A stretch of DNA of 64,000 nucleotides from Xestospongia muta (lineage: Eukaryota; Porifera; Demospongiae; Haplosclerida; Petrosiidae), in NCBI GenBank assembly GCA_963693285.1, contig OY848928.1:5795827-5859826 (forward strand). The letters run 5' to 3'. Both the position numbers and the translations under genes were made by a program. The notes under the pieces are model-generated. The model searched no databases and was not told where the DNA came from. It saw only the letters and a program-made list of their open reading frames with translations. Of the stretch, positions 22,774-25,700 are shown piece after piece. The stretch's first letter is position 1, and every line of letters begins with the position of its first letter.

Positions 22774-25700
22774 ATGGCTGTTAACTTTGGTACAGCGACT
22801 GGTACTGATATTCCAATAGATCGTTTAGATTGCGAGTATATTGGTCAATGTAATAACTCGTCAGAAGTGGAGAAAATATTGACTATATTGAGGTAACTCT
22901 CCAACTGTTCATGTACCTAACATGTACTATATGCTCCTTTAAAATTACTTAATAATTGATTTTTACTGCTTTATTTTGTAATGACAGTTGATAATATACA
23001 TTGAACACATAATATGTGTGTGTTAGTACCTGATACAGGATATCGGAAGAAATATCCAAGCTATAATGGTCGCTGTACAAATATCTCTCACTGGAAACCA
23101 ATAGTCATTAAAATAATATAATATTTTATATTTTAGATCAGGAAATGAAGGCTATTATCCTGAACTCATTGACTTTACTGAGAAAAGACTACAGACACTT
23201 AAACCAAACAGGTGTATTCAATATAATAACTATTAATTAACTATTAATTATTATTATAGTAAGTTATTAATAACAGATCAAAAGATAAAAAGAGCTGCTG
23301 AATTATCTACTGAACAATGGAGAGAATTAAAAAGTGATATTGATGTGAGTATAACTATGTGTCCATTACTTTGATATCTGTCCATTTCTATGATAGCAAT
23401 GGGAGAATGTAATGGCTCAAGAAGAAAGTGAAATTAAAGATAAAATGGAGGAGGATACAAATTGCATACCTCCAGTTCGTACTACTGTCACTATTAACTC
23501 AAAGCCTAAAGTACATATACTACATTATATATTATGTATATGTTAATATATTAGAATATACCAACTACTGTCACTATTAACTCAAAGCCTAAAGTACATA
23601 TACTACATTATATATTATTATGTTAATATATTAGAATATACCAACTACTGTCACTATTAACTCAAAGCCTAAAGTACATATACTACATTATATATTATTA
23701 TGTTAATATATTAGAATATACCAACTACTGTCACTATTAACTCAAAGCCTAAAGTACATATACTACATTATATATTATTATGTTAATATATTAGAATATA
23801 CCAACTACTGTCACTATTAACTCAAAGCCTAAAGTACATATACTACATTATATATTATTATGTTAATATATTAGAATATACCAACTACTGTCACTATTAA
23901 CTCAAAGCCTAAAGTACATATACTACATTATATATTATTATGTTAATATATTAGAATATACCAACTACTGTCACTATTAACTCAAAGCCTAAAGTACATA
24001 TACTACATTATATATTATTATGTTAATATATTAGAATATACCAACTACTGTCACTATTAACTCAAAGCCTAAAGTACATATACTACATTATATATTATTA
24101 TGTTAATATATTAGAATATACCAACGCATTCTCAATCTAATCCTAATCACATTAAGTCCACTGACTTTGATGCTTGGGATAAATACAATGGAACTGAAGT
24201 AAGAGTTGAAGAAGAAGTGAAGAAGAAAGAAAAAAATACCATCTCATCAGAACTGACTGAAAGGGGTATGTGATGAATAGATAGACGGATGAATAGATAG
24301 ATGGATGAATAGATTGATGGATGGATAGATTGATGGATGGATAGATTGATGGATGAATAGATGGATGGATAGATAGATGGATGAATAGATTGATGGATGA
24401 ATAGATTGATGGTTGAATAGATTGATGGATGGATAGATTGATGGATGAATAGATTGATGGTTAAATGGATCAATAAAAGAATGGATGAATATTCCTATTT
24501 TATTTTTAGAGACTAAATTAAGTGATAATGAGAAACAAAGACTTTCTGAAAGAGAAAGAGAAAAAGGAAATGAGGTGGGTGTGGCTTATAAATCCATCTC
24601 TATTCTCTTTGTATTAGGCATTTAGATCTGGTGATTATGATGAAGCTGTAGTCTATTATACTCACAGCATTAATTTATATCCATCAGCTGCAGCTTTTAA
24701 TAACAGAGCACTTACTTCACTTAAAGTTGGTAAATATATGGAGGCCATCACTGACTGTCAGGAGGCTTTAAATAAAGAACCTAATAATACTAAAGGTGGG
24801 TGTGGCTATTTATTCATTATCTTTTATCTGTCCATTTAGCTTTCCTGCGGCGAGCTACAGCACGAGATGCTCTCAAACAACATAAAGAAGCTATTGAGGA
24901 TTTAGAAATGGTTTTAAAATTAGACCCAAATAATAAAAGAGCACAAGATTTACTTAATAAAATCAGGAAAGAGGAAGTCCCTGGTAATAAGGATGAAACA
25001 AAAGGTGGAACTAAAAGCAAGAAAGGAAAAAGGATAATTATTGAAGAAGTTGACGACAAAACAGGAAGTGACGAGAAGCAAGAGTCTCCAGTTGAAGAAG
25101 TAAAGAGCACTGTAGACCACATCCCTCTGACACACCCACCAGTTGACCACACCCCTATGCCACCTCCTCCATTACCATCTCATATACAATCCCTCAAAGA
25201 TGATGGTAATACATTATTTCGTACTGGTCAGTATGCTAGTGCTGCTGAGAAATATAATGAAGCTATTGAACAGTTAAAAGCAGGTATGTAAATATCCTGA
25301 GATATACAATGTTTTACTAATGTTCTTTAGAGCCACATGATCATACACAATCCTTAGCAACGCTCCTTAGCAACAGAGCAGCATGTCATTTTAAAAACGG
25401 TGATTGTACTAGCTGTATTTCAGATGCAAGTGAATCAATTAAATTATATCCTGTTAATTTGAAGGCATTTATGAGGAGAGCATTAGCTTATGAGACAACA
25501 GAGAAGTCAGTAACTATATCATTATTATTATTGTATTAATATAATACATTATAGATATCGTCAAGCTTATAGTGACTATCAGGTAGCTCTGAGAATTGAT
25601 GGCCGAGTTGATAAGGCACGTGAAGCCTCCTCAAGGTAATGTAGCAGTGTTGTATTAGACTTTAAATATCTATTATCAGGATAATGGTTCTCCTCCGAGA

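What the first reader, a model, noticed from the sequence alone, without database searches (positions are those of the whole stretch)
23480..24120. Seven tandem, splice-ready 39-nt mini-exons inside SPAG1
The 80-bp unit is not plain intronic satellite. It spans the end of a real exon and the following intron, so every copy carries an acceptor (TATATTAG), a 39-nt exon in phase 0 and a donor (GTACAT), with a 41-nt intron typical for this genome. Each exon encodes NIPTTVTINSKPK. Both flanking constitutive exons also join in phase 0, so 0 to 7 copies can be included without a frameshift. If all are spliced, SPAG1 gains up to 91 residues of a 13-aa repeat; if variable, it is a one-parameter isoform generator. 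Copies are almost identical, so copy number is probably polymorphic. Repeated exon-intron units this short are rarely described.
Basis: partly seen in the sequence, partly recalled or inferred. Interest (0 to 1): 0.9.

Follow-up and report, generated by a model that had tools for sequence, protein, structure and literature searches.

The report
Tandem mini-exons inside sponge SPAG1 gene
In the one SPAG1 (cilia-assembly) gene found in what is probably a sponge genome, an 80-base piece holding a whole tiny intron plus the exon edges around it has been copied in tandem, leaving seven identical 39-base exons that could all be spliced in without breaking the protein; whether they are spliced in is not yet shown.

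Summary
Window 23511-24114 contains eight introns (44 nt, then seven identical of 41 nt) and seven identical 39-nt phase-0 exons encoding NIPTTVTINSKPK. They lie in an open gene with 17 further introns, the only SPAG1 locus my search found in this genome. The closest protein found, from the sponge Amphimedon queenslandica, aligns gap-free across the same junction with no repeats, so the array is probably derived. The unit equals the last 28-30 nt of exon 4, the whole intron, and the first 9-11 nt of exon 5, joined at a 2-bp overlap. It is a pre-existing intron multiplied at minisatellite scale. Because the unit carries its own intron, an 80-bp (non-3n) repeat is frame-neutral: every donor-acceptor pairing stays in frame.

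Unproven is the splicing. No transcript was found. The sites are usable but mediocre (22nd and 37th percentile), 41 nt is the lower limit of the introns I could measure, and my gene finder changed sides with its training set. Intron definition across very short introns favours full inclusion (1,032 aa), but mixed isoforms or whole-array skipping are not excluded. "Isoform generator" and "polymorphic" are conjecture. Precedents exist for the kind (Arabidopsis TOUCH3, schistosome tandem exons); small unit, copy number and identity make the new variant.

The parts
22774..27612 (+). SPAG1 gene model, ATG to stop: 26 exons including the 7 mini-exons, 25 introns
   Evidence: Hand-made splice model, in frame throughout; TPR_1 E 9.8e-45 and RPAP3_C E 1e-16; best relative Amphimedon SPAG1-like; only SPAG1 locus found in the genome with a 205-aa N-terminal query
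23397..23510 (+). Exon 4 (114 nt, ends phase 0); its last 28-30 nt (23481/23483-23510) are the upstream source of the unit
   Evidence: PPVRTTV.IN shared with Amphimedon
23511..23554 (+). First intron of the array, 44 nt; the only copy that differs from the others (three extra bases)
23481..24125 (+). 80-bp tandem array, 8.0 copies
   Evidence: TRF; no other place found in the genome
23555..23593 (+). Mini-exon 1 (39 nt, NIPTTVTINSKPK, phase 0-0)
23635..23673 (+). Mini-exon 2, identical
23715..23753 (+). Mini-exon 3, identical
23795..23833 (+). Mini-exon 4, identical
23875..23913 (+). Mini-exon 5, identical
23955..23993 (+). Mini-exon 6, identical
24035..24073 (+). Mini-exon 7, identical
23594..23634 (+). 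41-nt intron, donor GTACAT, acceptor TATTAG; identical copies start at 23674, 23754, 23834, 23914, 23994 and 24074
24115..24265 (+). Constitutive exon after the array (151 nt); its first 9-11 nt are the downstream source of the unit
   Evidence: NP..IKS..WDK matches Amphimedon

Best explanation
One short intron of SPAG1, together with the 28-30 nt of exon before it and the 9-11 nt of exon after it, was tandemly duplicated through a 2-bp overlap (AC) and then expanded to eight near-identical 80-bp copies by slippage or unequal exchange. Each copy inherited the parental donor, acceptor and any branch site (a TTAAT is a candidate), so each new mini-exon is spliced by the same intron-definition step that served the parental intron. 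The most likely product is a SPAG1 with all or nearly all seven mini-exons, that is eight TTVTINSKPK blocks in the poorly conserved linker between the N-terminal region and the first TPR. Because exon (39 nt) and intron (41 nt) travel together, loss or gain of any number of whole units, and any pairing of the 8 donors with a downstream acceptor (36 pairings), keeps the frame. Shown: anatomy, frame, absence of the repeat in one relative, single locus found. Inferred: mutational route, splicing, inclusion of most copies.
For: Anatomy and frame. Junction sequences show the fusion of exon 5 start to exon 4 tail with a 2-bp overlap. The zero-copy protein aligns without a gap to Amphimedon around this point, which lacks the repeat, so the parental intron was probably a real, in-frame splice. 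Only one SPAG1 locus found, with TPR and RPAP3_C domains detected, so its transcripts must cope with the array. Sites inside the range of real ones: donor 6.1 bits against 3.7-11.4 and acceptor 5.1 against -1.1 to 8.4 (leave-one-out) for the other 17 SPAG1 introns. 41-nt introns predicted in other genes (3 of 77). Retaining any one of the eight introns, or all, gives a stop at residue 143-233, before the TPRs, so correct splicing matters. A literature lead: in C. [quoted passage not shown] A 604-nt single intron would be the longest in this gene (others 43-244 nt).
Against: No transcript evidence. Against 65 predicted short introns (90 nt or less) of seven CCT-type genes the donor is at the 22nd and the acceptor at the 37th percentile, and AAA before the donor occurs once in 65; TTAAT occurs in 15 of 65, so it is a weak branch-site argument. 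A gene finder trained on SPAG1 itself includes all seven mini-exons (it gets 24 of 25 introns, but 17 of them trained it; scores). Trained on the CCT-type genes it calls 23511-24114 as one intron under both length priors tried. Net score per copy is +3.3 to +4.0 versus -0.9 bits, so ab initio prediction does not decide. [quoted passage not shown] elegans work a short downstream intron disrupted splicing of the test microexon even in wild type (PMC8378409, passages). Introns of the array are partly complementary to one another, which could loop exons out, although the array folds worse than 20 of 20 shuffles (z +5.9). Residues right at the junction are not conserved with Amphimedon, so the intron position there is unknown.
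Confidence: 0.62

Rival explanations
1. One-parameter isoform generator: the identical, mediocre splice sites compete, so mRNAs carry a distribution of 0 to 7 mini-exons and the array sets linker length, possibly by tissue.
For: Every pairing is in frame (arithmetic); sites are weaker than average; exons under 51 nt are often skipped in vivo (PMC8378409 passages).
Against: Nothing shows more than one isoform; short introns are expected to be recognised one by one (general knowledge); RNA folding shows no special structure; regulatory elements were not searched for.
Confidence: 0.2
2. The array is skipped as one 604-nt intron (23511-24114); the inner copies are splice-ready by descent but unused, i.e. 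a minisatellite that happens to carry exon pieces.
For: CCT-trained gene finder prefers it under both length priors; GT..AG units are common by chance (119 of 300 shuffles); two of the three long introns of this gene consist largely of simple repeats; the skipped product (941 aa) has about the length of the Amphimedon protein (943 aa).
Against: Skipping must bypass 14 intact copies of the sites it uses (7 donors, 7 acceptors); 604 nt exceeds the other 17 introns of the gene (max 244); SPAG1-trained finder includes all copies.
Confidence: 0.14
3. Copy number in the assembly is wrong (collapsed or expanded array).
For: Seven copies are letter-identical, the case in which assemblers err.
Against: 645 bp is short for long reads; contigs of up to 35 Mb suggest, without proving, a long-read assembly; the first copy differs and anchors the array.
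Confidence: 0.04

Closest known systems
Multiplication of a pre-existing intron by internal tandem gene duplication (Arabidopsis TOUCH3, Knowles & McLysaght 2006; Gao & Lynch 2009; both known to me only as described in the introduction of PMC4974935)
   Same: Duplicated segment contains an entire existing intron plus exonic sequence on both sides; no intron is made from scratch.
   Different: Unit is only 80 bp, eight copies, seven identical introns and mini-exons; it behaves as a minisatellite rather than a domain duplication.
Intron gain by tandem duplication with AGGT or other exonic sites (Rogers model and potato RdRp, PMC4974935 abstract and introduction; fission-yeast 24-nt arrays, PMC3629103 abstract and passages)
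   Same: Tandem repetition in a gene changes its intron content.
   Different: There new splice sites come from exonic sequence and the gained introns are made of repeat copies; here each unit carries a complete old intron.
Tandemly repeated exons and micro-exon genes of Schistosoma (Davis et al. 1988, title only; MEGs, PMC10526429 abstract and passages)
   Same: Runs of short exons, mostly multiples of three, in a row.
   Different: MEG introns are 0.1-5 kb, and 10-20 very short exons make up the gene; here introns are 41-44 nt and the array is one block in a conserved gene.
Olduvai/NBPF repeats (PMC9313022, abstract and section 2.2)
   Same: Copy-number expansion of exon-intron blocks inside a gene.
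   Different: Block about 4.7 kb with six exons and six introns.

Membership tests
SPAG1 / RPAP3-type cochaperone | TPR blocks plus C-terminal RPAP3_C domain | tested here: met
   TPR_1 149.1 bits, RPAP3_C 61.7 bits (cut-off 23); SPAG1 annotations among best relatives
Intron multiplication by internal tandem duplication | Repeat unit contains a whole pre-existing intron and exon sequence on both sides | tested here: met
   Unit = 28-30 nt exon 4 + 41-nt intron + 9-11 nt exon 5
Intron multiplication by internal tandem duplication | Duplication absent in a relative (derived) | tested here: met
   Amphimedon P0022 has no repeat there, gap-free alignment; one relative only, protein level only, so loss in Amphimedon is not excluded
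Intron multiplication by internal tandem duplication | Intron at the same position in the relative | not testable with these tools
   No genomic DNA of a relative was available
Intron multiplication by internal tandem duplication | Copied introns are spliced in mRNA | not testable with these tools
   No transcripts found (one search returned none)
Intron gain by AGGT duplication (Rogers) | New intron created from a duplicated exonic AGGT segment | tested here: not met
   Unit carries an old intron with its own sites
Coding minisatellite (VNTR) | Unit length a multiple of three and read through | tested here: not met
   80 mod 3 = 2; read-through stops at residue 143
Intronic minisatellite | Unit lies wholly within an intron | tested here: not met
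   Unit spans both junctions of a coding intron; would be met only if splicing skips the array
Schistosoma micro-exon gene | Long introns and a coding region made mostly of micro-exons | tested here: not met
   Introns of the array 41-44 nt; 273 of 3,096 coding nt are mini-exons

The most novel reading that the evidence does not exclude
An intron-bearing VNTR: because each unit brings its own intron, a repeat whose length is not a multiple of three mutates in whole-codon steps. Unequal exchange and competing identical splice sites then tune the linker length of a conserved cilia-assembly protein, and the number of weak introns tunes the fraction of correctly spliced, stop-free mRNA, so copy number acts as a rheostat on SPAG1 dose.
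Probability: 0.2. Interest if true: 0.8.

Novelty: new variant of a known kind. Interest (0 to 1): 0.5.

Why it matters
It looks like intron multiplication caught very young, with source sequence, breakpoints and identical copies all visible, at a scale where ordinary minisatellite mutation can create and remove exons. If the copies are spliced it shows a simple route to repeat proteins and to escape from the divisible-by-three rule of coding repeats. It is also a natural array for testing intron definition, since eight introns of 41-44 nt sit 39 nt apart with the same splice sites.

Tried and rejected
Chance as sole explanation: splice signals alone are not significant, so I do not argue from them; homology of the junction is what carries the claim. 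Ab initio gene prediction as proof of inclusion: rejected, because it flips with the training set (against 67, 68). In one search the shuffled-unit control was uninformative: all 200 shuffles under each of two length priors, and the native array, gave one intron. RNA structure forcing skipping: not supported. A second SPAG1 that would make this copy dispensable: none found. Such units elsewhere in the genome: DNA unit and intron pattern gave only this array; a contiguous repeat peptide, which would reveal intronless copies, gave 13 weak matches at E 0.02 or worse, 31-35% identity. Recurrence of exon-intron arrays: the survey covered 214 kb only, namely 15 stretches of 10 kb obtained of 20 asked (one fixed position, 1.00-1.01 Mb, on contigs 1-15; not random) plus the window, about 0.14% of the genome. 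It had 14 TRF rows of period 50 or more and copy number 1.9 or more (8 in the samples, 6 in the window). Two passed the lenient splice test: this one, and an EGF-coding repeat read on the wrong strand. Genes in the samples were not annotated. SP7 effectors of Rhizophagus as precedent: passages describe a conserved intron before the first repeat and do not mention one per repeat. A dmrt1 intragenic duplication in sole is of over 10 kb (PMC7605655, passages). Structure prediction was not run: the spliced protein is not a contiguous translation of the window.

Limits of the protein searches: (residues 1-230) did not list the Amphimedon protein among its 21 hits although one search found it, so word sampling misses relatives; one search took only candidates of about 127-404 residues. 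Absence of a transcript-derived protein is therefore weak evidence.

Literature searches behind any 'rarely described' wording (open-licence PubMed Central only; titles and abstract starts seen): searches (20 of 216 listed; 0; 20 of 78; 0; 4 of 4; 15 of 69; 0; 7 of 7; 12 of 25), 47 (3 of 3). Gao & Lynch 2009, Davis et al. 1988 and DeMarco et al. 2010 were not held. The DOIs tried were recalled. That SPAG1 is a cilia-assembly (axonemal dynein) factor is recalled, with one annotation of that name among the hits (P0021).

Full report
What is there. TRF reports an 80-bp array at 23481-24125, 8.0 copies, 99% matches. Parsed by its splice sites, the stretch holds eight introns, the first of 44 nt and seven identical ones of 41 nt, and seven identical exons of 39 nt, AATATACCAACTACTGTCACTATTAACTCAAAGCCTAAA. 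All eight introns start GTACAT and end TATTAG.

The gene. I assembled SPAG1 by hand from 22774 to 27612: 26 exons, 25 introns, open throughout, 1,032 residues with seven mini-exons and 941 with none (its counts of 1,033 and 942 include the stop). Pfam gives TPR repeats and RPAP3_C. The best relative in the protein collection, found with residues 380-610, is the Amphimedon queenslandica SPAG1-like protein (65% identity over the 63% of the query aligned; 51% over the whole alignment). The other rows of that search show 50% identity or less (120 rows listed of 158 hits). An earlier search with residues 1-230 gave 21 hits without Amphimedon, so these searches miss relatives. The host is therefore probably a demosponge related to, but not, A. 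queenslandica; its name is not known to me. In the genome (158 Mb, 28 contigs) a 205-residue N-terminal query matched only this locus (6 matches, all of them its exons), and searches for the repeat unit and its intron found no other place.

Origin. The zero-copy protein aligns to Amphimedon across the junction without a gap: PPVRTTVTINSKPK|NIPTHSQSNPNHIKS against PPVRTTVNINPQSKAKSTKKEPNPSRIKS. Amphimedon has no repeat, so the array is derived in this lineage or lost there; one relative cannot tell more, and the residues right at the junction are not conserved, so the intron position in Amphimedon is unknown. The simple reading is recent expansion, since the seven units are letter-identical. 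Each mini-exon is the first 9-11 nt of exon 5 fused to the last 28-30 nt of exon 4; the junction TACCA-ACTACTG joins TACCA-ACGCATT to TTCGT-ACTACTG with AC shared. So one segment running from exon 4 through the intron into exon 5 was duplicated and then expanded. The only difference among the eight copies is three extra bases in the first intron; the exon parts are identical.

Chance. Splice-readiness is not rare in itself: 119 of 300 dinucleotide shuffles of the unit contain a plausible donor-acceptor pair leaving an open 3n exon, and 39 of 300 reach the observed score. An exon part divisible by three is a one-in-three matter for any such duplication. The claim rests on the unit being a copy of a real junction in a conserved gene, not on the motifs.

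Will it splice? For: the sites are those of the parental intron and lie inside the leave-one-out range of the other 17 introns of the gene (donor 6.1 bits, range 3.7-11.4; acceptor 5.1, range -1.1 to 8.4). Against 65 predicted introns of 90 nt or less from seven Cpn60_TCP1-family (CCT-type) genes they are below median, at the 22nd and 37th percentile. Intron size is at the floor: 3 of 77 predicted introns in those genes are 41 nt and none is shorter (these come from my own gene finder, so the longest ones are unreliable). Amphimedon introns have a median of 71 bp (PMC5429095, passages). Short introns of this sort are expected to be recognised one at a time, by intron definition. In C. elegans the only two microexons found independent of PRP-40 have unusually short flanking introns, and a short upstream intron freed a test microexon from that need, though a short downstream intron disrupted its splicing (PMC8378409, passages). 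Retaining any one of the eight introns brings a stop at residues 143-233, so faulty splicing is costly.

Against, or undecided. A gene finder trained on SPAG1 includes all seven mini-exons and finds 24 of 25 introns, 17 of the 25 having trained it (26.5 against -7.3 bits for none). Trained on the CCT-type genes instead it recovers 16 of 17 other SPAG1 introns with a prior favouring short introns and 11 of 17 with a flat prior, and in both cases reads 23511-24114 as one intron. The shuffled-unit control of that call gave one intron in 200 of 200 under each prior, as did the native array, so it does not discriminate. The net per copy is +4.0 bits, or +3.3 with exons 4 and 5 left out of SPAG1 training, and -0.9 with CCT training. 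I therefore give ab initio prediction no weight. No protein from a transcript of this species turned up (a last search with a 231-residue fragment bearing one mini-exon scored none of 36 candidates), but these searches are not sensitive. Folding of the array as RNA is weaker than in 20 of 20 shuffles, although introns of different copies have 22-23 nt stretches 82-83% complementary to each other (25 longest of 57 pairs seen).

How it most likely works. The parental intron was removed efficiently enough to keep the gene; each copy repeats the same local context; so the default is eight successive excisions and a linker of eight TTVTINSKPK blocks between the conserved PPVR and WDK motifs, ahead of the first TPR. 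I put this at about 0.62 including origin and splicing, the origin alone being near certain. An array of 8 donors and 8 acceptors has 36 forward pairings, all in frame (simple arithmetic). Because each unit brings its own intron, an 80-bp repeat, which is not a multiple of three, is frame-neutral in both DNA copy-number change and splice choice. That is the interesting property. Variable inclusion, polymorphism and any functional use are conjecture.

Known kinds. The introduction of PMC4974935 (that section and the abstract seen) separates creation of introns by duplication (Rogers AGGT model, vertebrate ATP2A1, fission-yeast 24-bp arrays) from multiplication of an existing intron (Arabidopsis TOUCH3; Gao & Lynch 2009). 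This case is of the second kind. Fission yeast shows the alternative fate: gained introns that consist of tandem repeats (PMC3629103, abstract and passages). Schistosome micro-exon genes (PMC10526429, abstract and passages) share runs of short 3n exons but have introns of 0.1-5 kb; the 1988 report of tandemly repeated exons encoding 81-base repeats was seen as a title only. NBPF repeats are multi-kb blocks (PMC9313022, abstract and section 2.2). I found no report of exon-intron units this small in the searches made, which cover open-licence papers only and of which I saw listings, not every hit.

How common. In 214 kb (15 stretches of 10 kb at one fixed position on contigs 1-15, plus the window) 14 TRF rows had period 50 or more and copy number 1.9 or more; 2 of 14 passed the splice-ready filter, this array and an EGF-coding repeat on the wrong strand. 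That is 0.14% of the genome and says little about frequency. Simple repeats do lengthen introns here: two of the three SPAG1 introns over 200 nt contain a 16-bp minisatellite and a CT run, so an array born across an intron fits the local mutation style.

Noticed in passing
window 33039-33558: 114-bp repeat, 4.6 copies, 98% matches, open reading frame encoding EGF-like modules of 38 aa (GYTGESCSININECSPNPCQNNGTCIDGIAGYNCIC; the EGF label is by eye); a coding repeat of the ordinary 3n kind, a useful contrast to the 80-bp array.
   Followed up: partly
protein P0007 (Discoglossus pictus SPAG1 model), alignment A1 about columns 123-350: A frog SPAG1 gene model carries a 26-aa (78-nt) tandem repeat inserted within one residue of the sponge exon 3/exon 4 junction; possibly another repeat array at a SPAG1 linker exon boundary, or a mis-annotated intron.
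   Followed up: no
window 24266-24509 and 27178-27381: Two of three long SPAG1 introns owe most of their length to a 16-bp minisatellite and a CT dinucleotide run.
   Followed up: no
window 10294-10487: 18/36-bp Pro/Ser-rich repeat open in five of six frames, possibly coding.
   Followed up: no
window 1-64000 (G000:C12:5795827-5859826): The window ends 63,725 bases before the end of contig C12 (5,923,551 bases) and is rich in tandem repeats (47 TRF rows).
   Followed up: no
window 23536-24121: Array introns are nearly self-complementary (22-23 nt, 82-83% complementary between copies), so neighbouring introns could pair across a mini-exon.
   Followed up: partly
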